Assembly (NCBI RefSeq): GCF_009765905.1
Contig: NZ_LMUO01000009.1
Location: forward strand, 659,941 to 723,940
Length of the DNA stretch: 64,000 nucleotides
Direction: 5' to 3'
Source: Mucilaginibacter sp. L196
GTDB taxonomy: Bacteria; Bacteroidota; Bacteroidia; Sphingobacteriales; Sphingobacteriaceae
Shown: piece by piece, positions 31,912 to 59,053 of the stretch
Position numbering within the stretch: position 1 is the first letter of the stretch
Layout of the letters: every line of letters begins with the position of its first letter
Notes under the pieces: generated by a model
The model's database searches: none
Told to the model about the DNA's origin: nothing
The model's input: the letters and a program-made list of their open reading frames with translations, nothing else
Program-made: the position numbers and the translations under genes

Positions 31912-34900
31912 ATGAAACTAAATTTTACTTACTACCGGGCGTGGTTATTGGTAATGGGGATGCTTCTCTGTTCCGTAGTTCAGGCCCAAAACATCAAAAT
32001 CACCGGGCAGGTAATTGCTTCGGATGATCACGGTCCCCTACCGGGGGTGACTGTTGCAGTAAAGGGGACCACTAATGGTACTCAAACTGATGTAAACGGG
32101 GCATTCAGCATTAAAGCTGCAAGTGGAGATGTGTTGGTATTTAGATTTGTTGGGTATTCACCAACAGAAGTAAAGGTTAAAACTCAAGGTGCTATTAACG
32201 TATCCCTGGTGCCGGAAACTAAAAATTTAAATGAAGTTTTGGTTGTTGGTTACGGTACACAATCAAGAGAAACGGTAACAAGTGCTGTGGCTAAGCTTGA
32301 TCAGCAAGTTTTAGCTACGCAGCCTCGCTCTAACGTGGCAACGGCATTACAGGGAACGGTATCCGGTTTGCAAGTGATCAGCCAGACAGGTCAGCCGGGG
32401 GCGGCACCATTAATTACCCTGCGCGGGGGCGCTTCTATCAGTAGTCCACAGCAACCACTTATCATTGTGGATGGAGTGGTGAGGTCATATAATGATATAG
32501 CTGAAGAAGATATTGCTTCTATCGATGTTTTGAAAGATGCTGCGGCAACAGCCATTTATGGTTCAAGAGCAAGCAATGGTGTTATACTTATTACCTTAAA
32601 AAAGGGTAAGCAGGGATCATCTGATATAAATTATAAATATACTACAGGCTTTAATCAGAATAGGCAAGGTTACCAGTTTCTGGATGCGCAGCAATATATT
32701 TATTACGGCCGGTTAGGCAGTTTAAATTCAGGACGTTCGTTAGCGGCAATCAACTCTTCCGCTGGGTATGGGTTAAGCACAACCCCTACCGCGCTGGCAC
32801 AATACGACATACAGGAATCAACCCCATCTAATCAATATCTATTAAAACAAGGATGGCAGCTAATGAATGATCCTGCTGATCCAGGTACGCAAATTATTTT
32901 CAAGGATAATGAAAAAGAAATTCAGGATATGGTATTCAGAAATACCCAAACTGAAGACCATTACCTTAGCGCGTCTGGAGGAAATGATAAGGGTACTTAT
33001 TACTCGAGCCTTGATTATTATCATGAGCCCGGAGTTGTTATCGGTTCTGACTACAAGCGGTATACAGGAAATTTCAACGGTTCGTATAAAGTAAAGCCTA
33101 ATGTTGAAATAACCAGCGGTGTTACTTTCTCCGATTCACAAAATGCAGGCCCTGTAGCCAGCGATTTAAGTACATTTTACCGGACTTTATCGTTACAGCC
33201 AACGTTTAACCCATGGCTAAATGCGGCTAATACAGTTCCTGATCCCGGGAATTCAGCCTCAGACGGTAACCCATTATATTATCTGCAGCATGAAATAAAC
33301 AGTAATGAGGTTGATAATATTGTAGCCAATGCAGCTGTTAACTGGACTATAATTCCTGGCTTATCTTTCAAAGTATCGGGCAGCGGTTATTATTACCAAA
33401 ACCTGATACAAAACTTTACTGAGGAAACGCAAACTTTAGCGCAGATGTTCACTACCCCACAGGGTGGAAACGTAACACGGCCTTCAACTACAATTTATAA
33501 CAGGACATTCACACAGACCTATGATGGTACTTTAAATTATACTAAATCATTTGGGAAAAATAATTTCAACTTATTAGCAGGAGGTGAGTATTATGATATA
33601 TCAACTTTTGGTGATGAGGTTTATGGAACAAATGCGCCTACTGATAATATACCAACTGCAAACGCATCTACGCTATTTGCAGCCGGTAATAATACCAGTG
33701 TCAAAACAGATTTCAGGATTATATCCAGTTTTGCAAGGTTCAATTATGATTATGATCAAAAATACTTGTTTACTGCGGTATTGAGGGAAGATGGTGTGTC
33801 AGCATTTGCTGCTCAAAATAGGATTGGTTATTTCCCGGGCATGTCTGCCGGATGGAACATAGCAAAAGAAGATTTCTTTCAAAACTCAGGCATCAGTAAA
33901 ATAATATCTACTATTAAGCCCCGTATTAGTTATGGCGCAAACGGTAATGTAGGGTCCTTACAAAACAACCCCTACCTTTATCAGGGCACCTATAACGCAA
34001 CAACTACATATCCTCAATATAATGGGAATGGCGCTATTACCGCCACACAACTTCCCGATCCTAACTTACAATGGGAAACCAGTACCACTAAGGACGTGGG
34101 GATCGATTTGGGCTTTTTGCATGACCGCATAAGTTTAATTGTGGACTATTATGATAAGATTAACAGCAATCTACTTACAAACCTGACTTTGCCAACTGAT
34201 GTAGGCTTTTCAAGTATTTTAACAAACGATGGCACCTACCAGAACAAAGGCATTGAATTTACATTAAAGGCTAATCTGATTAACAGCCCTAACGGATTCA
34301 GGCTTGATTTTGGCGCGACCGCATCTTATGATAAAAATAAAGTCCTGAAACTACCTAATAATGGCCAACCCAATAATGGGGTAGGTACCACACAGGTATT
34401 TGACCCTAAAACCGGCAAGTTGATAAATGTAGAAGGTATACAGCAGGGTCAGCCGCTAGGCCAGGTATATGGTTATAAAGAGCTTGGCATTTTCCAGAAT
34501 GAGGCGCAAATAAAAGCTATAGCAGGAAACCGCAACGATGAAATTGGAGGCGTTACCGGGCCAAACCTTCCTGCCGGGCCGGGTGGGCATATTGTACCAG
34601 GCGATGTAAACTGGGAAGACGTGAATCATGATGGCATCATTGACTCACGCGATCAGGTTTACCTGGGCAACATATTCCCTGATTGGACAGGCGGATATAA
34701 TTTTAATGCTTCTTATAAAGGATTCTCGTTATATACCCGGTTCGATTTTTCATTAGGGAATGTAATTTATAATGATTTTGAAGCCAGGTCATTAGGCCAA
34801 TACCAGGGAACGTTTAATATGATAAGTGAAATGACCAATTCCTGGTCACCAACCAACACCAATACAATGATTCCACGGGTAACTTATGCCGATCAGGTGG

Positions 34901-35262
34901 TAGGTTCAGGTGCTAATTACACAAGAGGCAATAATGGAAACGCGAATTTGGACGGTGAGAATTCAGAATTTTATCAAAGTGGCAATTATATGGCCTGCCG
35001 TGAGATCAGCCTGTCCTACAATTTTCCTAAGGCGCTGCTGGCAAAAAGCCATGTGTTTAAATCCGCACGAATATTTGTAAGTGGTGAAAATCTCTTTTAT
35101 GTAAAAAGTTTCAGCGGTCCTGATCCTGAAGCACCTGTTACTGCCGGCGCAGCAGCTACCCCCGGCTCACCGGCTACTGGCGCCACTACTATTAATGGCA
35201 TTTATCAGGGTACCTACCCTACACCGCGTACTTATGTATTAGGCGTTTCAGTTTCTTTATAA
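31912..35262 (+). CDS. SusC/RagA-type TonB-dependent transporter (sialic acid locus)
   Basis: A 1116-residue outer-membrane transporter. The signal peptide ends at VVQAQ (residue 26). A carboxypeptidase D-like N-terminal domain (about 30-110: ITGQVIASDDHGPLPGVTV) leads to the TonB-box region LNEVLVVGYG. The plug follows (ASIDVLKDAAATAIYGSRAS), and then the beta-barrel with a terminal aromatic/hydrophobic strand (LGVSVSL). It imports glycan or monosaccharide ligand with the SusD lipoprotein encoded 17 bases downstream. Its place at the head of a sialic acid operon makes it analogous to NanO of Tannerella forsythia. The ligand is inferred. Confidence 0.93.
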   Translation: MKLNFTYYRAWLLVMGMLLCSVVQAQNIKITGQVIASDDHGPLPGVTVAVKGTTNGTQTDVNGAFSIKAASGDVLVFRFVGYSPTEVKVKTQGAINVSLVPETKNLNEVLVVGYGTQSRETVTSAVAKLDQQVLATQPRSNVATALQGTVSGLQVISQTGQPGAAPLITLRGGASISSPQQPLIIVDGVVRSYNDIAEEDIASIDVLKDAAATAIYGSRASNGVILITLKKGKQGSSDINYKYTTGFNQNRQGYQFLDAQQYIYYGRLGSLNSGRSLAAINSSAGYGLSTTPTALAQYDIQESTPSNQYLLKQGWQLMNDPADPGTQIIFKDNEKEIQDMVFRNTQTEDHYLSASGGNDKGTYYSSLDYYHEPGVVIGSDYKRYTGNFNGSYKVKPNVEITSGVTFSDSQNAGPVASDLSTFYRTLSLQPTFNPWLNAANTVPDPGNSASDGNPLYYLQHEINSNEVDNIVANAAVNWTIIPGLSFKVSGSGYYYQNLIQNFTEETQTLAQMFTTPQGGNVTRPSTTIYNRTFTQTYDGTLNYTKSFGKNNFNLLAGGEYYDISTFGDEVYGTNAPTDNIPTANASTLFAAGNNTSVKTDFRIISSFARFNYDYDQKYLFTAVLREDGVSAFAAQNRIGYFPGMSAGWNIAKEDFFQNSGISKIISTIKPRISYGANGNVGSLQNNPYLYQGTYNATTTYPQYNGNGAITATQLPDPNLQWETSTTKDVGIDLGFLHDRISLIVDYYDKINSNLLTNLTLPTDVGFSSILTNDGTYQNKGIEFTLKANLINSPNGFRLDFGATASYDKNKVLKLPNNGQPNNGVGTTQVFDPKTGKLINVEGIQQGQPLGQVYGYKELGIFQNEAQIKAIAGNRNDEIGGVTGPNLPAGPGGHIVPGDVNWEDVNHDGIIDSRDQVYLGNIFPDWTGGYNFNASYKGFSLYTRFDFSLGNVIYNDFEARSLGQYQGTFNMISEMTNSWSPTNTNTMIPRVTYADQVVGSGANYTRGNNGNANLDGENSEFYQSGNYMACREISLSYNFPKALLAKSHVFKSARIFVSGENLFYVKSFSGPDPEAPVTAGAAATPGSPATGATTINGIYQGTYPTPRTYVLGVSVSL

Positions 35263-35279
35263 CTATTAATCAATTAACA

Positions 35280-36839
35280 ATGAAAAAATATATAATCATA
35301 TTGTTATCGGGATTGGGTGTACTAACCCTGATACCTTCCTGTCGCAAGGATCTAAACCTGTCGCCAGTGAGCCAGATAAGTAATAGTACTTACTTTAAAA
35401 CAGCCACGCAGTTTGATGCTTATATTGCGGGTATTCACAGCGTCTTTCGTGCCCAGACTGAAAGTTTTCAGCGCTTAGGTGAAATGCGTGCAGATATATT
35501 TGGAACTGACCCCGGGTCGAGCACAGCATTTACTGGTGAAGCTACACAGGGATTGGAAAAAATGTGGGAGGAAACGCTAGATCTGAATACTGCAGGCGTA
35601 AATAATTATGGTTTCCCTCCTAGTGTATCCACAGCGAATAACTTTTATTTTAACATTGGCCAAATCAATACTATGATAGCCAATTTAAATACTACAACCG
35701 TTGTTACACCAGCAAATAAAAGTTATTACCTAGGTATATGTTATGGCATGCGCGCTTTCTATTATTTCCAAATCTACCGCAGTTGGGGCGATGCTATTAT
35801 AACTACTACACCTATTGTGGTTAACATCAATAACCTGAATCAGACGCAGTCGCCTGCGGCAAGTGTAATGACGCTTATTAAATCAGATATAGATCAGTCG
35901 GTAGCCAGCTTTGGTACAAATTACGCGTTTATGAATTCAAAAGGATACTGGTCATTATCAGCTACGTTAATGCTTAAGGCCGAAGTTTATTTATGGACAA
36001 GCAGTCATAATTCCAGCACCGCTGATGCCACAACTGCGTTGACTGCGTTAAACACCATTCAGACTAATGTTCCTTCTTTAGCACTATTGCCATCTTATTC
36101 AAGCGTTTTTGCTACTACAAACAGGGGTAATAATGAGATCATATTCGCGATCCACAATACACTTAATGAATATGCAATGGCTTGGGTGCAAAGCTCCTTT
36201 GTGCCACAAAATAACCTGATAATTGCTTATTATGATTCAATACAAAACCGCCAGTTTAACGCAACTACCGATAACTGGGGTGGCTTGCTGCGGGCCCCTA
36301 TAAAAATATCCACTTTCAGGCAGTTTAATCCTCTTGACAGCAGGAGGCTGGCTACCATACAACCATGTTATACCAAAGTAAGCGGAGCATATAAAATGGC
36401 CGGCTGTTTTGTTGATAAATACGCGGGCGAACAAAATGCAGGGGTAAGATCGATCACAAATGACTTTCCAATATACCGTTATGCTGATTTGCTTTTATTG
36501 AAAGCGACTGCCGAAGTTTACCTGGGCGAAAGCCCGGCTACTGAGATTAATATGGTAAGGTCAAGGGCATATGGAGCAAATTATGATGCGGCCACAATGA
36601 GCTACCCTAACCAGGCTGTAGATGCCAACCCCAGAGAGGCAATTTTACAGGAGCGTTTCTTTGAATTTATTTTTGAAGGAAAAAGATGGTATGATTTAAG
36701 AAGCATGGGTGATAGCTATGTGTACGAACATACCGCATTGACGGTGGCAAATGCATACGCTTTATTATGGCCGATTGATAAGCAAACGTTGGTAAACGAT
36801 CCATTGTTAAAGCAAACACCTGGTTATTCATCATTTTAA
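35280..36839 (+). CDS. SusD/RagB-type surface lipoprotein (sialic acid locus)
   Basis: A 519-residue lipoprotein with the lipobox IPSC (Cys21), followed by the SusD tetratricopeptide-like scaffold. Typical landmarks are MRAFYYFQIYRSWGDAII, YADLLLLKATAEVYLGE and the C-terminal AILQERFFEFIFEGKRWYDLRSMG. It forms the lid of the SusC channel and binds the ligand at the cell surface, in the manner of NanU. A strong hairpin directly follows the gene, before nanA, and may set the ratio of susCD to downstream mRNA. Confidence 0.92.
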   Translation: MKKYIIILLSGLGVLTLIPSCRKDLNLSPVSQISNSTYFKTATQFDAYIAGIHSVFRAQTESFQRLGEMRADIFGTDPGSSTAFTGEATQGLEKMWEETLDLNTAGVNNYGFPPSVSTANNFYFNIGQINTMIANLNTTTVVTPANKSYYLGICYGMRAFYYFQIYRSWGDAIITTTPIVVNINNLNQTQSPAASVMTLIKSDIDQSVASFGTNYAFMNSKGYWSLSATLMLKAEVYLWTSSHNSSTADATTALTALNTIQTNVPSLALLPSYSSVFATTNRGNNEIIFAIHNTLNEYAMAWVQSSFVPQNNLIIAYYDSIQNRQFNATTDNWGGLLRAPIKISTFRQFNPLDSRRLATIQPCYTKVSGAYKMAGCFVDKYAGEQNAGVRSITNDFPIYRYADLLLLKATAEVYLGESPATEINMVRSRAYGANYDAATMSYPNQAVDANPREAILQERFFEFIFEGKRWYDLRSMGDSYVYEHTALTVANAYALLWPIDKQTLVNDPLLKQTPGYSSF

Positions 36840-36889
36840 TATAAAGAAACTCTGCTTTAGGGTAGGGGATTAGTTTGGTTTAATAGAGA

Positions 36890-36929
36890 CTTTAGAAATA
36901 CCGGGGAGTGGTGGCCCCGGTATCTAAAG
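36890..36929 (+). promoter_or_regulatory. intercistronic RNA hairpin between susD and nanA
   Basis: CTTTAGA plus TACCGGGG (with a two-A bulge) pairs with CCCCGGTA plus TCTAAAG around an eight-base loop. The 15-bp stem has no following T tract. It is more likely a processing, attenuation or 3'-end stabilising element than a full terminator. Confidence 0.6.
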
Positions 36930-36979
36930 AAAATTTAACCACGTGCCCGGCTATTAAAGCATTAATAAAACAACTAGTT

Positions 36980-37909
36980 ATGAAATTTGAACATTTACAA
37001 GGATTAATAGCTGCTCCTTTTACGCCGATGGATAAAAACGGGCAACTGAATACTGCTATTATACCTGATTATTATCGGTTTTTAAAACATAATGGCGTAA
37101 CCGGCGCTTTCATTTGTGGATCTACCGGAGAAGGTGTTTCCCTAACTACCAACGAAAAAATGCAAGTTGCTGAGGCCTGGGCTTCGGCTACGGTAAATGA
37201 CACTAACTTTAAGGTAATGACCTTATTAGGCGGCAATAGTATTAGTGATTGTAAAGAATTGGCCAAACATGCCCAATTCTTGAATTTGTATGGTGTATCG
37301 TTTACATCACCCTCTTATTTTAAACCGGCTACTGTTGATGTTTTAGCCAAAATGTGCCTGGAAATTGCAGAAACAGTTCCGGATATGCCTTTTTATTATT
37401 ATCATATACCTGTATTAACTGGGGCTAACTTTGCGATGTTGAGCATGCTTGAAGCGCTGGACGGTAAACTGAATAACTTTGCAGGAATTAAATATACCCA
37501 CGAGGATTTTATGGACTTTCAGAGCTGCATGAGCTTTAAGAATGGCAAATATGATATGCTTTGGGGAAGAGATGAAAATATGCTATCGGCCCTGGTATTA
37601 GGTGCAAAAGGCGCTGTTGGTAGTACCTTTAATTATGCTCCATCTCTTTATCTGGAAATGATCACGGCATTTAATCAAAATGATTTAACAAAGGCCCGGG
37701 CACTTCAGCAAAAATCTATCGATATGATAAGGCTGCTTGGAAAATACGGCGGCATCTCTGTTGGCAAGGCTTATATGAAACTTGTTGAAGTAGATTGCGG
37801 AGAGTTTAGACTACCGGTAAAGAATATGGATAGTGAACAATTTAAGCACTTTACAGCCGATGTTCAAGCACTGGGATTTAACGGGTTTAAATCGAGCATG
37901 AAACAATAA
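36980..37909 (+). CDS. nanA: N-acetylneuraminate lyase
   Basis: A 309-residue class I aldolase of the DapA/NanA family that splits Neu5Ac into ManNAc and pyruvate. It shows GSTGEG at residues 48-52, the tyrosine before HIP (Tyr141 in YYYHIPV) and the Schiff-base Lys171 in GIKYTHED. WGRDENMLSALVLGAKGAVGST is typical of NanA rather than of dihydrodipicolinate synthase. I use the ATG at 36980; an upstream in-frame GTG at 36908 lies inside the hairpin loop. The mutarotase gene starts 10 bases downstream. Confidence 0.93.
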   Translation: MKFEHLQGLIAAPFTPMDKNGQLNTAIIPDYYRFLKHNGVTGAFICGSTGEGVSLTTNEKMQVAEAWASATVNDTNFKVMTLLGGNSISDCKELAKHAQFLNLYGVSFTSPSYFKPATVDVLAKMCLEIAETVPDMPFYYYHIPVLTGANFAMLSMLEALDGKLNNFAGIKYTHEDFMDFQSCMSFKNGKYDMLWGRDENMLSALVLGAKGAVGSTFNYAPSLYLEMITAFNQNDLTKARALQQKSIDMIRLLGKYGGISVGKAYMKLVEVDCGEFRLPVKNMDSEQFKHFTADVQALGFNGFKSSMKQ

Positions 37910-37919
37910 AACAATAGAA

Positions 37920-39107
37920 GTGAAAATCATTATTGCACTTTTCTTTACTATATACATAATGCTATTCTCCTTAAAAGACATCGCCCAGAATAATACAAAA
38001 CATATAACATGGTCGCAACCTACACAATTGCCAACCATTAATAGTAATAAGCAATTAGGCCTGGCCGGTGTTTTTACAGGGGTTAGTAATGATGTGTTAT
38101 TGGTTGCAGGAGGTTCAAATTTTGCAGATGGGGCAAAGCCATGGCAGGGCGGAAAAAAAATACATTACGACGATATATACGTCCTGGAAAAACATGGAGA
38201 AAATGGATTTACATGGCTAAGTCCTAAAACAAAACATTTAGCAAGGAAAGTCGCATATGGCGCAAGTACTTCAATAGCGGCAGGGGTAGTATGCGCGGGT
38301 GGTGAAACAGAAACTTCCGATTGCAGCTCGGAAGTGTTCTTGATGAAGTGGGACAAAAAACAACAGGATGTTAGTTTTCAAAACCTACCCTCGTTGCCTG
38401 TTCCGCTGGCAAATGCCTGTATGATAAGTATAGGAAATGTGATTTATTTATTTGGAGGAGAAAGCAGGGGCATACCAAGCAATAAATGCTTCAAATTAAA
38501 CCTGGGTGCGGCAATAAAGCAATGGGAAACCTTGCCGCCAATGCCGATAGCGATGTCGCATTCTGTTGTCGTTACGCAGTCAAATGGTAAGTATCCCTGC
38601 ATTTATATAATTGGAGGCCGTAGCAGTACACCAGCAGGTATAAGTACATTGCATAATAATACCTTTTGTTATGATCCGCAGGAAAATAAATGGATCAGGC
38701 TAGCCCCGGTTGGCGATGGTAATACGACAACTACCATGTCGGCAGGCACCGCTGTTGCAGAAGGTGATCATGATATTATTCTTATCGGCGGAGATAAAGG
38801 CAAAATTTTTCACCAGATAGAGGTATTTAATAACTGGATCAGCCATGCCCGTAATGATGTTGAAAAAAAACAATTACAAAATGAAAAATTACAGCTGTTA
38901 AATCATCACCCCGGATTTAGCAAGGATGTGTATATTTATAATACACTAAAAAACACCTGGGAACTAATGGGTAGCTTACCCTTTTACGGCCAGGTTACAA
39001 CAACAGCCGTAAAATGGGATAACGAAATTTTTATTCCATGTGGTGAAATAAAGCCGGGCACTCGTACCGCGGCCATAACAATGGGTGAGTTTTATAACGC
39101 AAAATGA
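37920..39107 (+). CDS. NanM-like N-acetylneuraminate mutarotase (kelch, cyclically permuted type)
   Basis: A 395-residue exported beta-propeller starting at GTG, with a signal peptide ending near DIAQN. Repeated kelch blades are visible: VLLVAGGSNFADG, VCAGGETETSDCSSEV, VIYLFGGESRG, IYIIGGRSST and IILIGGDKGK. It matches the cyclically permuted mutarotase family that interconverts Neu5Ac anomers in the periplasm. It overlaps the MFS gene by four bases (ATGA), so the two are translationally coupled, consistent with feeding the permease. Confidence 0.88.
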   Translation: MKIIIALFFTIYIMLFSLKDIAQNNTKHITWSQPTQLPTINSNKQLGLAGVFTGVSNDVLLVAGGSNFADGAKPWQGGKKIHYDDIYVLEKHGENGFTWLSPKTKHLARKVAYGASTSIAAGVVCAGGETETSDCSSEVFLMKWDKKQQDVSFQNLPSLPVPLANACMISIGNVIYLFGGESRGIPSNKCFKLNLGAAIKQWETLPPMPIAMSHSVVVTQSNGKYPCIYIIGGRSSTPAGISTLHNNTFCYDPQENKWIRLAPVGDGNTTTTMSAGTAVAEGDHDIILIGGDKGKIFHQIEVFNNWISHARNDVEKKQLQNEKLQLLNHHPGFSKDVYIYNTLKNTWELMGSLPFYGQVTTTAVKWDNEIFIPCGEIKPGTRTAAITMGEFYNAK

Positions 39108-40339
39108 TCAACGAGAAAAATTATCCCTGGGTTTTAGTTGGGTTACTTTGGGTAGTGGCCCTGTTGAATTACATGGACCGACAAATGCTGGCCGTTATGA
39201 AACCGACCATGCAGCTAAATATAGCTGAATTGAACTCGGCAACTAATTTCGGTTACCTGATGGCTATTTTCCTATGGGTATATGGTTGTATGAGCCCGGT
39301 TTCTGGTTTTATAGCCGATAAGTTCAATCGTAAATGGCTGATAATTTTAAGCTTATTTGTTTGGTCGGGAGTTACCTTCAGTATGGGTTATGCTACCACC
39401 TATAATCAGGTTTATTGGCTTAGAGCTATAATGGGGGTGAGTGAAGCCCTGTATATTCCTGCCGGGTTATCATTAATCGCGGATTTTCACTCGTCCAAGA
39501 CCCGTTCCCTCGCTATAGGCATCCATATGACCGGGTTTTACGCCGGGCAAGCATTAGGCGGCTTTGGTGCTACCGCGGCCGCGGCATATTCCTGGCAAAC
39601 TACTTTTCACTATTTTGGGCTAACAGGTATGATCTATTCCCTGGTATTGATCTTGTTCTTAAGAGGGAAAAAAACTCAGGCAGAAAAAATATTGGAGGAT
39701 CTTCCCATCTCCTCCGACAAATTACCAACGGTTAAAGGTTTGGCAATTTTGTTTGCCAATATCTCCTTTTGGGTCATTGTTTTTTACTTCGCGGTTGCAA
39801 GTGTTCCCGGTTGGGCCTGTAAAAACTGGTTACCTACGCTCTTCGCGCAAAACTTAAATATACCTATGGCCAAGGCAGGCCCGGTTTCAACAATAGCCAT
39901 TGCCGCGTCTTCATTTATTGGGGTGATATTTGGCGGAATTTTGTCAGATAGATGGGTTCAAAAAAATGCGAAAGGCCGTATTTATACCAGCGTAATCGGT
40001 TTGGGGTTGACCATACCAGCCTTATTATTGATGGGCTTTGGACATACTTTCTATGCCGTTGCCGGTGCAGCAGTTTGTTTTGGATTGGGCTACGGCATAT
40101 TCGACGCGAACAATATGCCCATCCTGTGCCAGTTTGTAGCATCCCGTTACCGGGGCACTGCGTATGGAATTATGAATATGACAGGGGTGTTTGCCGGTGC
40201 GATAATTACCGGTCTGCTGGGTAAATCATCAGATGCCGGAAACCTCGGTAAAGATTTCGCGATGCTGGCTGGCATTGTATTGCTGGCCTTAGCAGCTCAA
40301 CTATACTTTTTGCGTCCCGGAGAAAAAGATGCTGTATAA
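39104..40339 (+). CDS. nanT: MFS permease, probable sialic acid transporter (NanT-like)
   Basis: A 411-residue major facilitator with twelve predicted membrane segments. It carries the signature LNYMDRQMLAV in helix 1 and the loop 2-3 motif GFIADKFNRKW, a form common in the anion:cation and sugar-acid symporter branch. In Bacteroides fragilis and T. forsythia an MFS NanT moves Neu5Ac across the inner membrane, and this gene sits between the mutarotase and esterase genes of the operon. The substrate is assigned from context. It overlaps the mutarotase gene by four bases. Confidence 0.85.
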   Translation: MINEKNYPWVLVGLLWVVALLNYMDRQMLAVMKPTMQLNIAELNSATNFGYLMAIFLWVYGCMSPVSGFIADKFNRKWLIILSLFVWSGVTFSMGYATTYNQVYWLRAIMGVSEALYIPAGLSLIADFHSSKTRSLAIGIHMTGFYAGQALGGFGATAAAAYSWQTTFHYFGLTGMIYSLVLILFLRGKKTQAEKILEDLPISSDKLPTVKGLAILFANISFWVIVFYFAVASVPGWACKNWLPTLFAQNLNIPMAKAGPVSTIAIAASSFIGVIFGGILSDRWVQKNAKGRIYTSVIGLGLTIPALLLMGFGHTFYAVAGAAVCFGLGYGIFDANNMPILCQFVASRYRGTAYGIMNMTGVFAGAIITGLLGKSSDAGNLGKDFAMLAGIVLLALAAQLYFLRPGEKDAV

Positions 40340-40386
40340 TCCGTTGCTTAGCGGGCGCTTTTATTAAATAATAAATAATATAAATC

Positions 40387-42492
40387 ATGAGATTGAACAA
40401 TAAACAAAAGATAACACCGATAATACTAACCACACTTTTGTTTATGAGTTTGTCCCTTTTTGCTCAAAAAAAGGCGATTAAAGTTGCTTGTGTTGGCAAC
40501 TCGGTTACTTATGGCTATGGCCTTCAGCACAGGGAACAAGAATGTTATCCGGTACAGCTGCAGGCATTATTAGGTAGCAATTATGATGTAAGAAATTTTG
40601 GTCACAGTGGTGCTACACTATTGAAAAAAGGCCATAACCCCTATTATAAAACACCCGAATTTGAGGCAGCTACCTCCTTTGCTCCCGACATTGCCATTAT
40701 ACATCTCGGCTTAAATGATACAGACCCCAGAGATTGGCCGGATTATCATGATGATTTTGAAGCAGATTATGCCTGGCTAATTGCTCAATTCAGGAAAGCA
40801 AACCCTGCCGTTAAAATATACATATGCAGGCTAACGCCTATATTCAGTGGTCATCCCCGTTTTAAATCAGGAACCAGGGATTGGTACTGGAAAATACAAA
40901 ACCTTATTCCCGAGATTGCACGTGTAAACCATGTTGGGCTGATCGATTTACATTCACCACTATATGCACGCCCGAACCTGTTTGCAGATAATATTCACCC
41001 GGATAAGGAAGGAGCATCAATACTAGCATCTACTATTTCTGATGCCATCATCGGCTATCATGGCAGTCTGGAAATCCCGGCTACATTTAGTGATAACATG
41101 GTGTTGCAAAGAAATACGCAAATACCACTCACCGGAAGGGCCAACGCCGGAGACTTACTCCAGGTATACTTTCAACAACATAAATGGACGGCTACAGCTG
41201 ATATGGATGGCTACTGGAAGGTTATGCTGCCCGCTATGCATGCCGGAGGGCCGTTTAACCTGACTATAAAAGATCACGATTCCGTTATTACCCTCAAAAA
41301 TATATTGATCGGCGATGTGTGGATATGTTCAGGCCAGTCTAATATGGCATTTCCACTTAATCAGGAGGCTGATGGGCAATCCGAAATTCAAAAAGCCGCT
41401 GATAGCAAAATGATCAGGCTATGCAATATGGAGGTGCTTAGACAGCCGGATGCGGTTGTTTGGGACAGCACTGCCTTAACTAAGATTAATAAACTGGCAT
41501 ACTTTTCCGGATCATGGAAAACAGCCAGCGCGCTTTCTGCAAAAGATTTTTCTGCGATTGGCTATTATTTCGCGAAAAAAATAAATTCATCGGAGCATGT
41601 TCCAATAGGAATTATCGAAATAGCCGTAGGCGGCTCACCTATTGATTCGTGGATCGATCGTTATACGATGGAGCATGATCCCATTTTGGTTGATATGCTG
41701 AGTAACTGGAGAAAATCAGACTTTTTGATGAAATGGTGCCGGGATCGTGCCGACGTTAATTTAAAAAATGCGACTGCTTTCGGCCAGCGCCATCCTTATG
41801 ACCCCTGTTATAATTATGAAGCAGGTATAGCCAACCTGGTTAATTTTCCGGTTAGCGGCGTTATCTGGTATCAGGGCGAAAGCGATGCTGACCAACCGGA
41901 TCTGTACCGCCTTTTGTTTAAAACAATGGTTGGCAGCTGGCGGCAAAAATGGGGTTATCAGCTTCCTTTTTACTTTGTTCAGTTATCCGGTATAAATCGT
42001 CCGTCCTGGCCTGCATTTAGGGATATGGAAAACAAAATGCAGCAGCAAATCCCGGGGGTACATATGGCTGTAAGTATGGATATGGGCGACTCGTTAAATG
42101 TGCATTACAAGCGAAAAGCGGTAGTTGCTGACCGGCTGGCCTTGCTGGTCCGGCGCTATACTTATCATGAGCCAGTAATAGCCGATGGACCGGCAGTAGT
42201 TTCAATGGTTCAAAAGAACAACGCTGTCATGATCACTTTTAACAATAAACTGGCCACCAATGACGGTAAATCATTAATCGGCTTTGAATTGGTAAATGAA
42301 AAGGGCGAGCGTTTGCCTGTGAGCGCAGCCATAAAAAATAACCAGGTATGGCTAAGAATCCCCTCGGGCGAAAAGATAAAAACGGTGTTTTATGGCATGC
42401 AGCCTTATACACATGCTAACCTGGTAAATAATTCAGGTTTGCCGGCATCTACATTTATCCTTCCCCTTCACGATAATAAAAAATTTGAATAA
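40387..42492 (+). CDS. nanS: dual-SGNH sialate O-acetylesterase
   Basis: A 701-residue exported two-domain esterase. The signal peptide ends at LFAQ (residue 27). The first SGNH domain (30-225) has Ser39 in GNSVTYG, GLND and the DNIHP dyad (Asp201, His204). The second is a sialate O-acetylesterase (SASA/DUF303) domain with Ser316 in CSGQSNM, GVIWYQGESDA and His573. In the usual motif this His is followed by Pro; here it is Tyr (NVHYKRK). Two-domain NanS-type esterases of Bacteroidota remove O-acetyl groups from sialic acids so that sialidase and lyase can act. It sits one base before the epimerase gene. Confidence 0.88.
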   Translation: MRLNNKQKITPIILTTLLFMSLSLFAQKKAIKVACVGNSVTYGYGLQHREQECYPVQLQALLGSNYDVRNFGHSGATLLKKGHNPYYKTPEFEAATSFAPDIAIIHLGLNDTDPRDWPDYHDDFEADYAWLIAQFRKANPAVKIYICRLTPIFSGHPRFKSGTRDWYWKIQNLIPEIARVNHVGLIDLHSPLYARPNLFADNIHPDKEGASILASTISDAIIGYHGSLEIPATFSDNMVLQRNTQIPLTGRANAGDLLQVYFQQHKWTATADMDGYWKVMLPAMHAGGPFNLTIKDHDSVITLKNILIGDVWICSGQSNMAFPLNQEADGQSEIQKAADSKMIRLCNMEVLRQPDAVVWDSTALTKINKLAYFSGSWKTASALSAKDFSAIGYYFAKKINSSEHVPIGIIEIAVGGSPIDSWIDRYTMEHDPILVDMLSNWRKSDFLMKWCRDRADVNLKNATAFGQRHPYDPCYNYEAGIANLVNFPVSGVIWYQGESDADQPDLYRLLFKTMVGSWRQKWGYQLPFYFVQLSGINRPSWPAFRDMENKMQQQIPGVHMAVSMDMGDSLNVHYKRKAVVADRLALLVRRYTYHEPVIADGPAVVSMVQKNNAVMITFNNKLATNDGKSLIGFELVNEKGERLPVSAAIKNNQVWLRIPSGEKIKTVFYGMQPYTHANLVNNSGLPASTFILPLHDNKKFE

Positions 42493-42493
42493 G

Positions 42494-43675
42494 ATGAGTT
42501 ATACAACACATGACTTGGAAAGACTAGCTGATTTTTATCAGGATCAATTATTAAATGATACAGTACCCTTTTGGTTCCCGAGGTCGATTGACACGGAGTT
42601 TGGTGGGTATTTGCTGATGCGTGACCGTGATGGCAGTCTGATTGATGATGATAAGGCGGTTTGGATACAGGGTCGTGCCGCCTGGTTATTAGCAACGCTT
42701 TATAATACCGTAGCTCCTAAGCAAGAATGGCTGGAAGGTGCCAAAGTCGGTATAGATTTTTTGAATCAACATTGTTTTGATACCGATGGCCAGATGTTCT
42801 TTCACGTAACCCGTGATGGAAGCCCGATACGCAAACGCCGTTATTATTTTTCTGAAACATTTGCCGTTATCGCAATGGCTGCATATGCTAAGGCCTCCGG
42901 CGATGAAGCTGCTGCCGAGAAAGCACGATACCTGTTTGGTAAATGTATAGACTATGCAACGATACCCGGTTTGTTGCCGCCGAAGTTTACTTCAACGCGC
43001 CCGGCTAAGGGTATTGGCGTACCGATGATCATGATCAACACCGCGCAGCAATTAAGGGAAACCATTGGTGACCCCAGGTGCGATGAATATATCAGCCAAT
43101 GGATAAAGGAAATTGAAACCGATTTTATAAAACATGACATCAGGTGTGTGATGGAACAGGTTGCTCCCGATGGAAGTATAATAGACCATATTGATGGCCG
43201 TACGCTTAACCCGGGGCATGCTATAGAGGGTGCCTGGTTTATTTTGCATGAGGCGAAATACCGGAACAATGATCCGCATCTGATCGCGCTGGGTTGCCAG
43301 ATGCTTGATTATATGTGGGAACGTGGCTGGGATAAAGACCATGGTGGTATTTTGTATTACCGAGATGTGTACAACAAGCCCGTACAGGAATACTGGCAGG
43401 ATATGAAGTTTTGGTGGCCTCATAATGAAGTGATCATTGCCACCTTATTGGCATATACCATGACCGGAGATGAAAAGTACGCGGAATGGCACAAACTGGT
43501 GCATGATTATGCTTATAGTCATTTTCATGATAAGGAACATGGGGAGTGGTTCGGCTACCTGCATCGCGATGGCAGCATTGCGCAAACTGCAAAAGGTAAC
43601 CTATTTAAGGGCCCTTTTCATTTGCCTCGGCAGGAATGGTATTGCCTTGAAATCTTAAAAAATTATAAAAAATGA
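42494..43675 (+). CDS. nanE: N-acylglucosamine 2-epimerase (RenBP/AGE family)
   Basis: A 393-residue (alpha/alpha)6-barrel enzyme interconverting ManNAc and GlcNAc. The catalytic histidines are visible as His242 in LNPGHAIEG and His376 in GPFHLPRQEW, with WWPHNEV between. This is the B. fragilis NanE type, not the E. coli ManNAc-6-phosphate epimerase. It implies that GlcNAc is the product, to be phosphorylated by a separate hexokinase (RokA in B. fragilis) not seen here. I use the ATG at 42494; the upstream in-frame TTG overlaps the esterase stop. It overlaps the sialidase gene by four bases. Confidence 0.93.
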   Translation: MSYTTHDLERLADFYQDQLLNDTVPFWFPRSIDTEFGGYLLMRDRDGSLIDDDKAVWIQGRAAWLLATLYNTVAPKQEWLEGAKVGIDFLNQHCFDTDGQMFFHVTRDGSPIRKRRYYFSETFAVIAMAAYAKASGDEAAAEKARYLFGKCIDYATIPGLLPPKFTSTRPAKGIGVPMIMINTAQQLRETIGDPRCDEYISQWIKEIETDFIKHDIRCVMEQVAPDGSIIDHIDGRTLNPGHAIEGAWFILHEAKYRNNDPHLIALGCQMLDYMWERGWDKDHGGILYYRDVYNKPVQEYWQDMKFWWPHNEVIIATLLAYTMTGDEKYAEWHKLVHDYAYSHFHDKEHGEWFGYLHRDGSIAQTAKGNLFKGPFHLPRQEWYCLEILKNYKK

Positions 43676-44844
43676 GATCATTATTAATTTATCTGCTGTT
43701 TTGTATAACAGGTATTACGATTGTACAGGCACAGACAACGGGTGTGCCTGTTTTTGTTTCCGGGACGGAAGGTTATAAAACATTTCGTATCCCGGCTATA
43801 ATCAAAGCTCCTAATGGCGACCTGCTTGCCTTTTGTGAGGGAAGAGTAAACGGTGCAGGTGATTTTGGAAACGTTAAAGTGGTACTTAAACGTAGTGAAG
43901 ATAATGGTAAAACATGGAGTGGTTTACAGGTGGTTGCGTCAAATGATACGCTTCAAACAGATAATTCAGCCCCGGTTGTTGATATGTCGGATCCGGCTTA
44001 TCCCAAAGGACGTATATTTCTGTTTTACAATACCGGAAACGTATCGGAAGCAAAGCTGCGTAGGGGTTTGGGCGTTAGGGAAGTATGGTATAAAACATCT
44101 GTTGACAATGGTAAAAGCTGGTCGGACGCGGTCAATATTACTTTGCAGGTACATAAACCTAAACAGCCAAGTTTTAATAAAGACTATAATTTTGTAGAGG
44201 ACTGGCGCAGTTATGCCAATACACCCGGGCATGCCATACAATTAGTGGCAGGGAGATATAAAAACCGCATTTATGTTGCTGCCAATCATTCTGCCGGTGC
44301 CCCGCAAAAAAGATATGCGGATGGAAGAGCGTTCGGATACTACACTGATGATCATGGCAAAACATTTAAAATAAGTGATGATGTCCCTATGCCTGGTGGC
44401 AATGAAGTAATGGCAACCGAGCTTTCTGATTCCCGTGTGATGCTTAATGCGCGCAACCAGCTGGGTAATGTAAAAGCGAGAATAGTGGCTATAAGCAAAA
44501 ATGGGGGTAAAAACTGGGATACCACTTATTTCGATCGGCAGCTTCCCGACCCTGTTTGCCAGGGCAGTATACTCAACATAGGCCAAAAACATGGGAAAAG
44601 CATATTGGCTTTTTGTAATAATGCCGATACCACCAGCAGGGATAACCTTACCTTGCGCATCAGTTATAACGAGGGTAAGACATGGCCTTTTAGCGAGGTT
44701 ATTGCAAAATCTCCGGATGGCTATAAGGGTGATTATACCGGCTACTCCGATTTAGTTAAATTATCGGCTAACGAGATTGGTGTGTTTTATGAGAAGGATG
44801 ATTATAAACAGTTAATTTTTACTATAATCGACTGGAAAAAATAA
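43672..44844 (+). CDS. nanH: GH33 exo-alpha-sialidase
   Basis: A compact 390-residue exported sialidase with a signal peptide ending at VQAQ (residue 21). The FRIP motif gives Arg39, and Arg261 and Arg329 complete the arginine triad. Five Asp-box segments occur: SEDNGKTW (75-82), SVDNGKSW (143-150), TDDHGKTF (225-232), SKNGGKNW (275-282) and SYNEGKTW (331-338). Glu250 and the nucleophile Tyr358 (YTGYSDL) are present. There is no extra carbohydrate-binding domain. It frees terminal sialic acid, probably in the periplasm or at the surface. Confidence 0.95.
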   Translation: MRSLLIYLLFCITGITIVQAQTTGVPVFVSGTEGYKTFRIPAIIKAPNGDLLAFCEGRVNGAGDFGNVKVVLKRSEDNGKTWSGLQVVASNDTLQTDNSAPVVDMSDPAYPKGRIFLFYNTGNVSEAKLRRGLGVREVWYKTSVDNGKSWSDAVNITLQVHKPKQPSFNKDYNFVEDWRSYANTPGHAIQLVAGRYKNRIYVAANHSAGAPQKRYADGRAFGYYTDDHGKTFKISDDVPMPGGNEVMATELSDSRVMLNARNQLGNVKARIVAISKNGGKNWDTTYFDRQLPDPVCQGSILNIGQKHGKSILAFCNNADTTSRDNLTLRISYNEGKTWPFSEVIAKSPDGYKGDYTGYSDLVKLSANEIGVFYEKDDYKQLIFTIIDWKK

Positions 44845-44885: not shown

Positions 44886-47800
44886 ATGGTTCGTTTAAAT
44901 TTGAAAAATATATTAAGAACAGCGGCTGTAGCGATAGTGATTTTTACGTTTGGTTGCAGCCCAGCAAGGGCACAGCAAGTAAAATATATTTCGGGGCATA
45001 ATGAATGGAATCCCGATTCGTTGGGCAATCATCGCGCTATTGTTAAAGTTTCGCATACGGCCGGGGCAGCCAGTGTATGGATCCCATGGCGCAGGCGGGA
45101 TAATCCAGCCGAAAAAAACATTATTGTAGTTGACTCAGCTACGGACAAAAGAATTTATAATGTAAAAGCTGGCGAGTTAACACGTGAAAGCGGGATGATT
45201 TATTTTGAGCCCACTTCAGGTGCAGGTACTTATTATATTTATTATCTGCCTTATCATGTAGATCCAAAATCAAACTATCCGCATGCGGTGTATCAGAAAT
45301 GGAGCAATCACGTTGATGGTGAATGGTTAAAAGGCTTGCAAAGTCAGTCGGTAACCAAGGCAAATTTAATATGCCTGGAGGCCATAAATGCGCTGAACAG
45401 TTTTTACCCGATGGAGGTGATAGCCACCCGCGCAGAGGTTGACGGTTTAATAGCTGCTAATCAGCATAAACTCTACCTTGTTTTTCCTGAAGACAGGCTG
45501 CATCCGATTAAAATGACTACGGATATTCCTGAGCGCTGGATAAACAAAGGTGCAAACGTGAATTTTATTGATACGGCGGCAAAAGGCGAAAATTTTAGCT
45601 ATCAGCTGGGTTTGTATGCATTTAACAAAGAGATTCGGAATGTTAAAATAAAATTTGCTGACCTGAAAAGTACTTCTGGCGGAATAATACCTGCAAGTTT
45701 ATTCTCCTGCTTGAATACAGATGGAAGGAATTGGGATAATACCATTATAAGTAAAATAGTGGATGTTCCTGCTGGACACATACAAACTTTTTGGTGTTTG
45801 GTTAATCTACCCCAAAACACAGGTGCGGGGATATACAAAGGCACAGTAACGGTAACAGCCAATGATGCGCCGCCAACTATGGTCAAAATTACTTTGGTAG
45901 TTACGAATCGTGTGCTTGCTGATGGTGGTGTAAACGAGCCCTGGAAACAGACAAGGTTAACCTGGCTGAACTCTAGCATGGGGCAAAAGAATGATGTTAT
46001 CAAACCTTATATTCCATTAACGCTTGCCGGAAATACTATTAGTTTGCTTGGGCGGAAATTGACGATTGCTGATAATGGTTTACCGGCACAGGTTGAAACC
46101 TATTTTACGGAGGAAATGACCAGCATCGGCAAGCTGCCGCGGCAAATTTTGAAGTCGCCTTTTCAATGGGTTGTTAAGGATAAAACAGGCACAGCCATTA
46201 AATGGACAACTAGCAAACCGATTTTTAACGATGTTGAACCCGGCCAGGTAAGCTGGTCTTCTACTAGTCGCTCAGCCTCGCTGCTGATGAAAGTAAAGGG
46301 CGGTATAGAATTTGACGGCTTTATGCATTACCGCATTCAGATGATCGCGCGGAAGAATATTGATTTGAACGACATTGCTATGGTGATACCGTTTAAAAAG
46401 GATGTGGCGCAATATATGATGGGGCTTAACCTGAAGGGCACTAAAATGCCAGCAGCTTATAGCTGGAAATGGGACGTAGCGCATAAAAATCAAGACGGAG
46501 CCTGGGTAGGCGATGTTAATGCAGGGCTACAGTTCTCGCTAAGAGATCAGCATTATGTACGCCCGCTGAATACAAATTTCTATCTGCAAAAACCTTTGTT
46601 GCTTCCTGTTTCATGGGGTAATAATGGCGAAGGTGGTATTGATATTTCTGAAAATAAAGATAAAACCGACGTGAACTGTTACAGCGGTAAACGCACCATG
46701 AAAAAAGGAGATACGCTGTATTATGATATTAACCTAATGATTACGCCTTTTCATGCTATAAACACCGAGCAGCAATGGTCATTACGTTTTTATCATAAGT
46801 ATGATAATGTTGATAGCATTAAGGCAAAGGGTGCTACGGTTATAAATATACATCATGGCACACCTATTAACCCATATATCAATTATCCGTTCATCGCGCA
46901 TGATGCCATGAAAGCTTATATTGATTCAGCGCATAATTTGGGGCTGAAAGTAAAAATTTACAATACTGTTCGTGAGCTTTCAAACAGCGCTTACGAGTTA
47001 TTCCCGCTGCGTAGTTTGGGACACGAAGTTTACTCGACAGGAAAAGGTGGCGGCCATGCCTGGCTACAGGAACATTTGGACAGTGATTACATTGCAGGTT
47101 GGTATGTACCCGAGGTAAGAGATATGGCCATTGTGAATAGCGGAATGAGCCGCTGGCACAATTATTATGTTGAGGGAATGAACTGGCTGGTAAACAACGT
47201 TGGGATTGACGGTATTTATCTGGATGATGTAGCATATGACCGTACAACAATGAAGCGCATTAAACGTGTCCTTACTCAAAACGGACACCCCGGCATTATT
47301 GATCTGCATTCGGCTAATCAATATGATGATCGCGACGGATTTAACAACAGTGCTAATCTTTACATGGATCAATTCCCTTACCTGAACCGCTTATGGTTTG
47401 GCGAATATTTTGATTATCAGCATAATGATCCTGCATTCTTTCTTACAGAAGTTTCGGGGATACCTTTCGGGCTTATGGGAGAGATGTTGCAGGGCGGGGG
47501 TAATCCATGGAGAGGGATGATATATGGCATGACCAACCGGATGCCATGGTCTGATAATGCCGACCCGCGACCAATATGGAAAGCCTGGGATGATTTCGGA
47601 ATAAAAGGCAGCCGCATGATAGGCTATTGGGTAAAAACCAATCCGGTAAAAACAACTGATCCTGAAATACTGGCTACTGTTTATAAAAAGGATAAAAAAG
47701 CAATGGTGGCTATTGCAAGCTGGGCAGCTACGGACAAAAAAATAAAGCTGCTGATTGATTGGAAAGCTTTACATATTGATCCTGCCAAAGCAACTATCGT

Positions 47801-47906
47801 AGCGCCTGCAATAAAAGGTTTCCAGGTGGCTAGTCAGTTTTCAGCATCCGATGATATACCGGTTGAAAAAGGTAAAGGCTGGCTGTTAATTATCCAACAG
47901 CAGTAA
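44886..47906 (+). CDS. large putative glycoside hydrolase-like protein of unassigned family
   Basis: A 1006-residue exported protein beginning at the ATG at 44886. The N-terminus has FTFGC (a weak lipobox) or a cleavage site at ARAQ. The first 600 residues appear to be beta-sandwich modules (ASVWIPWRRRD, FYLQKPLLLPVSWGNNGEGG). The C-terminal third looks like a TIM barrel: KVKIYNTVRELSN, AGWYVPEVRDM and WLVNNVGIDGIYLDDVAYDR. Asp780-Asp781 are candidate catalytic residues, followed by GIIDLHSANQYDDRDGF. It resembles Bacteroidota glycoside-hydrolase-domain proteins of the DUF6067 kind, with no reaction known to me. It follows the sialidase by 41 bases and is probably cotranscribed, so a role in sialoglycan breakdown is likely. 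Confidence 0.75.
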   Translation: MVRLNLKNILRTAAVAIVIFTFGCSPARAQQVKYISGHNEWNPDSLGNHRAIVKVSHTAGAASVWIPWRRRDNPAEKNIIVVDSATDKRIYNVKAGELTRESGMIYFEPTSGAGTYYIYYLPYHVDPKSNYPHAVYQKWSNHVDGEWLKGLQSQSVTKANLICLEAINALNSFYPMEVIATRAEVDGLIAANQHKLYLVFPEDRLHPIKMTTDIPERWINKGANVNFIDTAAKGENFSYQLGLYAFNKEIRNVKIKFADLKSTSGGIIPASLFSCLNTDGRNWDNTIISKIVDVPAGHIQTFWCLVNLPQNTGAGIYKGTVTVTANDAPPTMVKITLVVTNRVLADGGVNEPWKQTRLTWLNSSMGQKNDVIKPYIPLTLAGNTISLLGRKLTIADNGLPAQVETYFTEEMTSIGKLPRQILKSPFQWVVKDKTGTAIKWTTSKPIFNDVEPGQVSWSSTSRSASLLMKVKGGIEFDGFMHYRIQMIARKNIDLNDIAMVIPFKKDVAQYMMGLNLKGTKMPAAYSWKWDVAHKNQDGAWVGDVNAGLQFSLRDQHYVRPLNTNFYLQKPLLLPVSWGNNGEGGIDISENKDKTDVNCYSGKRTMKKGDTLYYDINLMITPFHAINTEQQWSLRFYHKYDNVDSIKAKGATVINIHHGTPINPYINYPFIAHDAMKAYIDSAHNLGLKVKIYNTVRELSNSAYELFPLRSLGHEVYSTGKGGGHAWLQEHLDSDYIAGWYVPEVRDMAIVNSGMSRWHNYYVEGMNWLVNNVGIDGIYLDDVAYDRTTMKRIKRVLTQNGHPGIIDLHSANQYDDRDGFNNSANLYMDQFPYLNRLWFGEYFDYQHNDPAFFLTEVSGIPFGLMGEMLQGGGNPWRGMIYGMTNRMPWSDNADPRPIWKAWDDFGIKGSRMIGYWVKTNPVKTTDPEILATVYKKDKKAMVAIASWAATDKKIKLLIDWKALHIDPAKATIVAPAIKGFQVASQFSASDDIPVEKGKGWLLIIQQQ

Positions 47907-51681: not shown

Positions 51682-51983
51682 CGGGTTATTAAAAAATGGA
51701 GATTTTAAAATTCAAGAAGATAAAGTTAGCAATGGCCGCGCATTTATCATGGCTGATAATTGATAGATGATACCCGGATTTTAGCTTGTTTATTATAAAA
51801 TATTGTTTTTGGTAGATATTGTTAAAAATGTCATTAATACTTGATTAATACGCTGTTAATGCTATGATAATATACAGTTAGTATTGGATAATAAGGGTAA
51901 AAAAAGTGGTTTTGCCTTTCCATAATTTTATCACAGTGCTAATTGATTTATTTCCATAACGAATTTTCCCAAACTCAAACTCT
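51682..51983. promoter_or_regulatory. shared promoter region of GH127 and susC2
   Basis: A 302-base AT-rich divergent region with no open frame worth calling. ATTAATAC occurs at 51833-51840 and 51844-51851, and a variant GTTAATGC at 51854-51861. The start spacings of 11 and 10 bases put all three on one face of the helix, as expected for an AraC-type activator. I see no clear TAnnTTTG promoter. Confidence 0.45.
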
Positions 51984-55007: not shown

Positions 55008-55033
55008 TTATTCATTCCTTATAAAGATTAAAA

Positions 55034-57456: not shown

Positions 57457-57468
57457 TAAACAAGCTAA

Positions 57469-59052: not shown

Positions 59053-59053
59053 A

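What the first reader, a model, noticed from the sequence alone, without database searches (positions are those of the whole stretch)
44886..47906. Unassigned 1006-residue hydrolase-like protein downstream of the sialidase
The protein has N-terminal beta modules and a C-terminal TIM-barrel-like part with the Asp pair in GIYLDDVAYDR, but it matches no characterised glycosidase family that I can name. Position directly after GH33 in the operon suggests a role on sialylated glycans, for example a new endo- or exo-acting enzyme.
Basis: partly seen in the sequence, partly recalled or inferred. Interest (0 to 1): 0.68.

Follow-up and report, generated by a model that had tools for sequence, protein, structure and literature searches.

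The report
Sugar-cleaving enzyme family mislabelled as GH123
This is a secreted enzyme from a large, apparently untested bacterial family that databases call GH123; its catalytic part instead resembles enzymes that cut alpha-linked sugars, and its place beside a sialidase looks incidental.

Summary
The 1006-residue ORF is real and intact. It matches Pfam PF19543 ("GH123_N") over its whole length (1487 bits), so it belongs to a named family, but a misnamed one. Only one internal beta-sandwich resembles GH123. The GH123 catalytic domain PF13320 is absent even at E<=10 (5 of 5 controls scanned have it), and the DE motif is absent (DD in 126 of 126 rows, 107 distinct). The barrel's only other Pfam relatives are DUF6259 and GH66 (34 and 28 of 40 members), and GH66's catalytic Asp aligns with D780. 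Foldseek ranks GH36 FpGalNase, then GH97, first; VIA ranks GH123 and PL26 chains slightly higher. Best reading: a retaining alpha-glycosidase with D780 as nucleophile and E840 as acid/base (inferred), perhaps on HexNAc/Gal-rich glycans. The sialic-acid link fails: GH33 lies within 30 kb in 1 of 45 genomes (this one), and in a close relative the sialate operon is deleted, leaving a broken GH33 stub, while this gene is kept. An N-acetylhexosamine-kinase relative lies within 30 kb in 21 of 45, but 15 of these share one genus. The paper searches made here found no assayed member.

The parts
44886..47906 (+). CDS of the PF19543 protein, 1006 aa (the feature of the finding)
   Evidence: open frame; PF19543 1486.8 bits over residues 39-1004
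44886..44972 (+). probable signal peptide, residues 1-29 (cleavage after ARA)
   Evidence: read from the sequence; not computed by a predictor
44973..45383 (+). N-terminal beta module, residues 30-166 (not searched on its own)
   Evidence: AlphaFold2 strands
45471..45920 (+). GH123-type beta-sandwich, residues 196-345
   Evidence: PF22680 2.2e-9 over 231-324; profile hit to BvGH123 5l7v 2.9e-8; VIA 8k2g Z 17.3, rmsd 2.3, 142 residues, 25% id
46014..46754 (+). galactose-mutarotase-like supersandwich, residues 377-623
   Evidence: VIA 4bze Z 16.5, rmsd 3.0, 206 residues
46776..47648 (+). catalytic barrel, residues 631-921, GH66/DUF6259-like
   Evidence: Pfam DUF6259 and GH66 in 34 and 28 of 40 members; hhalign E 5.5e-6 / 1.7e-5
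47223..47228 (+). codons of D780 (predicted nucleophile) and D781
   Evidence: GH66 catalytic Asp aligns with D780; invariant 126 of 126 rows; D780 follows strand 776-779
47403..47405 (+). codon of E840, predicted acid/base
   Evidence: invariant 126 of 126 rows; follows strand 836-839, in a stretch of pLDDT about 60; assignment inferred
47649..47903 (+). C-terminal beta domain, residues 922-1006
   Evidence: AlphaFold2
43672..44844 (+). GH33 sialidase gene, neighbour judged incidental
   Evidence: Pfam BNR_2; linkage 1 of 45
31967..44609 (.). sialate block absent by deletion in relative L053
   Evidence: blastn breakpoints

Best explanation
A secreted (periplasmic or surface) glycosidase of the uncharacterised family behind Pfam PF19543. 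It carries a GH123-type beta-sandwich and a mutarotase-like supersandwich as structural or binding modules, and a GH66-like (beta/alpha)8 barrel that does the chemistry. Predicted mechanism: retaining double displacement on an alpha-linked sugar, with D780 at the end of strand 4 as nucleophile and E840 at the end of strand 6 as acid/base; D781, D806 and H808 help. Likely role: releasing or trimming alpha-linked residues of HexNAc/Gal-containing glycoconjugates, alongside enzymes such as N-acetylhexosamine kinase, GH109, GH95, GH20 and GH35 that lie near it in one relative or another. Shown: family, domain make-up at the sequence level, invariance of the residues, sequence relation to GH66/DUF6259 around D780, and loss of the sialic-acid link. 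Inferred: retention, alpha specificity, E840 as acid/base, substrate.
For: DUF6259 and GH66 are the only other Pfam families hit at E<=0.01 (34 and 28 of 40 members scanned). hhalign of the barrel: GH66 (6 sequences) E 1.7e-5, P 79; DUF6259 (3 sequences) 5.5e-6, P 86; eight controls E>=0.018: GH36, GH97 and GH123 as alignments, GH20, GH35, DHDPS, GH127 and NanA as single sequences. GH66 FDGFHIDQLG aligns with IDGIYLDDVA. That Asp is the GH66 catalytic one: it lies 62 residues before the Glu in L132 as Asp293 and Glu355 do in FjGH66 (PMC10316084, passages), and it is Gly in the dextranase entry 5axh. GH66 catalytic residues lie at the ends of strands 4 and 6 (PMC5408701, passages), as D780 and E840 do in the model. 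D780, D781, D806, H808 and E840 are invariant in 126 of 126 rows, 107 distinct. Foldseek ranks GH36 FpGalNase first and GH97 entries next for both models. A deep-sea protein of this description, DSSM_1, was modelled by others with a GH66-like barrel and no DE motif (PMC11087588, passages). Context: NahK-like kinase in 11 of 80 loci, GH109/GFO cluster in 22 of 80; kinase 7e-53 to solved NahK; GH109 of L080 6e-151 to 2ixa; a 40% identical relative sits with a GLAA-B protein.
Against: GH66 and DUF6259 scores of the window protein are below Pfam's curated cut-offs (17.4 against 23.7; 18.3 against 28.7). No GH66 structure is among the 50 rows shown in any fold search. VIA puts GH123 chains first (5fr0 Z 17.8, rmsd 21.8 over 320 residues, model range 167-858) and PL26 (Z 17.4, rmsd 2.6 over 220) above FpGalNase (Z 16.1, rmsd 8.0 over 500). 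In one search, non-glycosidase and beta-galactosidase matches stand between GH97 and GH31. The barrel is the least certain part of the model and was worse when folded without the N-terminal domains (pLDDT under 50 in long stretches). Profile alignment beyond D780 is unreliable and does not place E840 on the GH66 Glu. D781, invariant here, is Q in the aligned GH66. 15 of the 21 kinase linkages are one genus; in the two of those loci read (L192, L194) other genes lie between, in L192 one that reads as a DnaK-like chaperone. The close GH109 clade is within 10 kb in only 3 of 45 genomes, read by eye.
Confidence: 0.55

Rival explanations
1. It is a beta-N-acetylgalactosaminidase that works like GH123 by substrate-assisted catalysis, with the D780-D781 pair standing in for the DE pair (as a DD pair does in GH84, recalled).
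For: The Pfam name; a true GH123-type beta-sandwich; GH123 chains top the VIA list with a range that reaches into the barrel, though at rmsd 21.8; an invariant adjacent acid pair at the end of strand 4, where the aligned GH66 has D-Q; HexNAc-related neighbours.
Against: No PF13320 GH123_cat even at E<=10 while 5 of 5 controls scanned (of 11 such loci) have it; barrel profile unrelated to the GH123-type members (hhalign E 0.23); E never follows D780 (0 of 126 rows). DSSM_1 was set aside as a beta-GalNAcase candidate on structure by Sumida et al..
Confidence: 0.17
2. It works on sialylated or freshly desialylated glycans as a functional partner of the adjacent GH33.
For: 41 bp spacing and same strand in the window; near relative L052 keeps the order; L080 and L115 also have a GH33-like gene in the flank (3 of 80 loci in all).
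Against: GH33 within 30 kb in 1 of 45 genomes; L053 deleted the sialate block and kept this gene; GH33 presence not associated (p=0.29).
Confidence: 0.1
3. The barrel is a transglycosidase, lyase or other non-hydrolytic enzyme on a sugar (GH66 contains glucanotransferases; PL26 also shows up by fold).
For: GH66 includes cycloisomaltooligosaccharide glucanotransferases; PL26 5xqg Z 17.4, rmsd 2.6, 220 residues, model range 339-797.
Against: SusC/D-type genes in many of the loci (44 and 43 of 80; names by reading) favour degradation; only 220 residues align to PL26 over that range.
Confidence: 0.15

Closest known systems
Pfam PF19543 GH123_N family (by description including DSSM_1 of Sumida et al. 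2024)
   Same: Full-length match, 1486.8 bits; DSSM_1 is described with a single GH123-like beta-sandwich, a GH66-like barrel, no DE motif and no DUF4091.
   Different: Name and use of the model as GH123 (PMC13355591, passage) imply an activity that no call supports; the DSSM_1 sequence was not fetched, so its membership is inferred.
GH66 dextranase / CITase
   Same: Barrel profile; catalytic Asp position; HH, AH..K..YN and DG motifs.
   Different: Below the Pfam cut-off; accessory domains look different; D781 where the aligned GH66 has Q.
GH36 FpGalNase (Flavonifractor plautii galactosaminidase)
   Same: First in Foldseek: E 1.2e-14 for the mature protein, 1.4e-16 for residues 347-1006; VIA Z 16.1, rmsd 8.0, 500 residues, spanning 382-1006.
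   Different: Large rmsd; no sequence-profile similarity to GH36 members; K-x-D of FpGalNase (K461, D463, PMC11762096) is Y-L-D here.
GH123 beta-N-acetylgalactosaminidase
   Same: One beta-sandwich domain.
   Different: No GH123 catalytic domain, no DE motif.
DUF6259 (PF19773)
   Same: Strongest secondary Pfam hit, 34 of 40 members.
   Different: Function unknown; window protein below cut-off.

Membership tests
GH123 | Catalytic domain PF13320 (DUF4091/GH123_cat) | tested here: not met
   No hit at E<=10; 5 of 5 controls scanned, out of 11 such loci, hit at 4e-93 to 1.3e-116
GH123 | Consecutive DE catalytic motif (PMC11087588) | tested here: not met
   D780-D781 is DD in 126 of 126 rows
GH123 | N-terminal beta-sandwich | tested here: met
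   PF22680 2.2e-9, 5l7v 2.9e-8, 8k2g Z 17.3 rmsd 2.3 over 142 residues
GH123 | beta-N-acetylgalactosaminidase activity | not testable with these tools
   needs enzyme assay
GH66 | Match above the curated Pfam score | tested here: not met
   17.4 bits against 23.7
GH66 | Catalytic Asp at the end of barrel strand 4 | tested here: met
   GH66 D281 of L132 aligned with D780; its identity as the catalytic Asp; strand 776-779 precedes D780
GH66 | Catalytic Glu at the end of barrel strand 6 | tested here: inconclusive
   E840 follows strand 836-839 at pLDDT about 60 and is invariant, but the profile alignment there is unreliable
GH36 | Sequence-profile relation to Melibiase members | tested here: not met
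   hhalign E 0.3, P 0.2 against 15 members
GH36 | K-x-D nucleophile motif (K461/D463 in FpGalNase) | tested here: not met
   Y778-L-D780; Y778 invariant; FpGalNase residues from PMC11762096
GH36 | Supersandwich-barrel-C-domain fold | tested here: inconclusive
   Foldseek E 1.4e-16 but TM 0.37 and rmsd 11.8
PF19543 (sequence family) | Full-length match above cut-off | tested here: met
   1486.8 bits against 22, model positions 1-969 of 969

The most novel reading that the evidence does not exclude
The roughly 1000-residue PF19543 proteins found a new glycoside hydrolase family, wrongly filed under GH123: retaining alpha-N-acetylhexosaminidases or alpha-galactosaminidases (exo or endo) that use a GH66-like D780/E840 pair on mucin-type or blood-group-like glycans, recruited by soil and water Bacteroidota.
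Probability: 0.22. Interest if true: 0.65.

Novelty: new variant of a known kind. Interest (0 to 1): 0.42.

Why it matters
Pfam and at least one 2026 annotation tool treat the model as GH123, so such genes are liable to be counted as beta-N-acetylgalactosaminidases. The predicted alpha-type mechanism is directly testable and would correct many annotations. Blood-group and mucin-active alpha-enzymes are also of practical interest.

Tried and rejected
GH123 membership by name: rejected after the PF13320 and DE-motif tests. Sialic-acid partnership: rejected on linkage and on L053. GH36/GH97 membership: favoured by Foldseek, not by sequence profile. Folding residues 347-1006 alone made the barrel worse. 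Fold lists showed no GH66 chain among their 50 rows; this is no exclusion. Viral contigs: 38 pattern matches, no relative. PADLOC and NCBIfam: no hit for this protein. DUF5107, DUF3472, DUF5077: 5 papers, only the listing seen, no function taken from it. Paper searches by name: GH123_N/PF19543/DUF6067 gave 1 paper and IPR045711 with related terms the same 1; one passage of it was seen, which uses the model as a GH123 marker. Broader searches led to PMC11087588 and to PMC7531118 (passages), whose GH123 is a DUF4091 protein, not this family. PMC12856340 (a fused sialidase/beta-GalNAcase) was seen in the listing only. So no assay of a member was found in the held library. The name DUF6067 was recalled and is unverified. 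The GH109 linkage looked strong in gene clusters (22 of 80, single-linkage cluster, three members checked by Pfam) but is weak for the close GH109 clade (3 of 45). NahK linkage is partly shared ancestry, and the match list was cut off, so its counts are lower bounds. The 45 genomes include two whose match covers model positions 141-969 only and one split copy. In one search several loci were short contigs with little flank, and all 80 were counted. GH97 and DUF6259 alignments lost one row each (19 of 20, 3 of 4) because no usable frame was extracted. In one search three of the 80 loci (L077, L098, L106) were dropped from the structure alignment for length.
Full report
What is there. The window codes for an intact 1006-residue secreted protein at 44886-47906 on the plus strand, 41 bp after a GH33-type sialidase gene and 86 bp before an MFS transporter gene. 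Upstream lies a sialate operon: SusC/D-like pair (named by reading), NanA-like aldolase, NanM-like epimerase, MFS transporter, GDSL/SASA esterase, N-acylglucosamine 2-epimerase and GH33. It missed that the protein matches Pfam PF19543 "GH123_N" end to end, 1486.8 bits.

Is it a GH123? No, by the features that could be tested. PF19543 hits GH123-type proteins only over about 50 to 140 residues, the beta-sandwich, while those proteins carry PF13320 GH123_cat (5 of 5 scanned, out of 11 such loci). The window protein has no PF13320 match even at E<=10. Profile searches of solved structures reach GH123 enzymes only in that sandwich (best 2.9e-8, profile positions 221-341). GH123 is defined by a consecutive DE pair (PMC11087588, passages); here the pair is DD in 126 of 126 aligned rows, of which 107 are distinct in the barrel, down to 35% identity. 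The same paper reports DSSM_1, a deep-sea protein pulled in by a GH123 domain search, with five domains, one GH123-like sandwich, a GH66-like barrel and no DE motif or DUF4091; the authors set it aside, and the passages seen report no assay of it. I take DSSM_1 to be a member of this family from that description; its sequence was not fetched.

What the barrel is. Of 40 relatives scanned over residues 347-1006, 34 hit DUF6259 and 28 hit GH66 at E<=0.01, and no other Pfam family besides PF19543 appears; the window protein's own scores are below the curated cut-offs. Profile alignment of residues 631-921 gives E 1.7e-5 for GH66 (6 sequences) and 5.5e-6 for DUF6259 (3 sequences), against 0.018 or worse for eight control families: GH36, GH97 and GH123 as alignments, five others as single sequences. 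In the alignment the GH66 Asp of HIDQLG (D281 of L132) lies on D780, and the motifs HH, AH..K..YN, N....W and DG also correspond. That this is the GH66 catalytic Asp is supported from calls: FjGH66 has catalytic Asp293 and Glu355, 62 apart (PMC10316084, passages); D281 and E343 of L132 are 62 apart and align with its structure 8iu8 at a constant offset from those numbers; the Asp is Gly in dextranase entry 5axh and the Glu is Ala in 9sjf, as expected of inactive mutants. GH66 catalytic residues sit at the ends of strands 4 and 6 (PMC5408701, passages). In the AlphaFold2 model strand 776-779 is followed by D780 and strand 836-839 by E840. Hence D780 as nucleophile and E840 as acid/base. The second is less certain: the profile alignment past D780 does not place E840 and local pLDDT is about 60. 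That the Asp is the nucleophile of a retaining reaction in GH66 is recalled.

Fold. The mature-protein model has pLDDT 81.4 and pTM 0.77, with the barrel weakest. Foldseek ranks FpGalNase, a GH36 galactosaminidase, first (1.2e-14), then GH97. Residues 347-1006 folded alone give FpGalNase 1.4e-16, then GH97, then other matches (beta-galactosidase, MdoD, YidC), and GH31 lower; that model has a poor barrel. VIA orders things differently: GH123 chains first (5fr0 Z 17.8, rmsd 21.8 over 320), PL26 Z 17.4 (rmsd 2.6 over 220), 8k2g Z 17.3 (rmsd 2.3 over 142, the sandwich), and FpGalNase 8x1b Z 16.1 (rmsd 8.0 over 500); many rows are tied. GH66 chains are not in the 50 rows shown. Foldseek's order leans towards an alpha-glycosidase type of enzyme but names no one family; that GH36, GH97 and GH31 act mostly on alpha-linked sugars is recalled.

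Sialic acid or not. In 80 named loci the sialate set (lacking the GDSL/SASA gene) accompanies this gene only in L052, a near relative; a GH33-like gene is in the flank of 3 of 80 (L052, L080, L115) and an AGE relative in L052, L115 and L116. In 45 genomes of the family with a match of 900 bits or more, GH33 is within 30 kb in 1, the window (0.26 expected), and GH33 presence is not associated (19 of 45 against 52 of 156, p=0.29). In L053 the stretch matching window 31967-44609 is missing: the start of the SusC gene runs straight into the tail of the GH33 gene, which carries frame breaks, so this looks like an old deletion and not an assembly join, although L053 is from a metagenome bin. The PF19543 gene in L053 is intact, 93% identical, pairwise dN/dS 0.08, a value that includes the time before the loss. 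The gene is therefore kept without the sialate operon.

What it is near instead. Within six genes in the 80 loci: SusC 44, SusD 43, an arylsulfotransferase-like protein 35, cytochrome c 31, DUF5107-TPR 31, DUF3472 23, GH109/GFO cluster 22, M1 peptidase 21, NahK-like kinase 11, LacI 10, GH95 4 (cluster names come from one to three members each, or from reading). The kinase is a close relative of solved N-acetylhexosamine 1-kinases (7e-53) and lies within 30 kb in 21 of 45 genomes against 0.71 expected. Fifteen of the 21 are one genus; in the two such loci read (L192, L194) other genes lie in between. In several Mucilaginibacter loci and in L080, L112 and L113 the kinase is adjacent or a few genes away. 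L080 combines LacI, NahK, GH95, a transporter, this gene, an A-zyme-like GH109 (6e-151 to 2ixa), DUF5107 and a GH33 fragment. A 40% identical relative sits with a GLAA-B protein and a GH95-like protein. In the window GH35, two GH20 genes and DUF3472 lie upstream. This points to HexNAc/Gal-rich glycoconjugates, but it does not name the bond cut.

Verdict. An intact member of a widespread and misnamed family for which no assay was found; most likely a retaining alpha-glycosidase with D780/E840; not GH123; not specifically tied to sialic acid. Confidence in the mechanism is about 0.55, in any specific substrate well below that.

Noticed in passing
49315-61353: GH127 gene (minus), a second SusC/D-like pair, then DHDPS-family, aldehyde dehydrogenase, proline racemase family and FAD oxidoreductase genes: looks like a locus for hydroxyproline-arabinosides such as extensin (inference from recalled pathway knowledge).
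   Followed up: no
L053:9700-9960 and window 31967-44609: Natural deletion of the whole sialate operon in a close relative, leaving a decayed GH33 tail.
   Followed up: yes
Pfam PF19543 / IPR045711: The model called GH123_N covers a whole different protein family; a 2026 tool uses it as the GH123 marker, so counts of GH123 may be inflated.
   Followed up: partly
L039:1435-2259: Secreted 274-aa protein made of the supersandwich domain alone (PF19543 positions 340-608), next to genes that read as ribosomal protein L17/RNA polymerase alpha and a GMC-type oxidoreductase pair; a similar oxidoreductase pair borders the full-length gene in L192.
   Followed up: partly
L107:13241-16375 and L202: DUF5107-TPR protein is a recurrent neighbour (31 of 80 loci), also beside the 43% identical relative in L202; no function found.
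   Followed up: no
L052: This near relative keeps the sialate operon but lacks the GDSL/SASA gene (window 40387-42492) and the MFS gene 47993-49228.
   Followed up: no
G185:C1:109184-112056: PF19543 gene split into two overlapping pieces, perhaps a frameshift or sequencing error.
   Followed up: no
9509-13078: Anhydro-N-acetylmuramic acid kinase and GH92 genes upstream.
   Followed up: no
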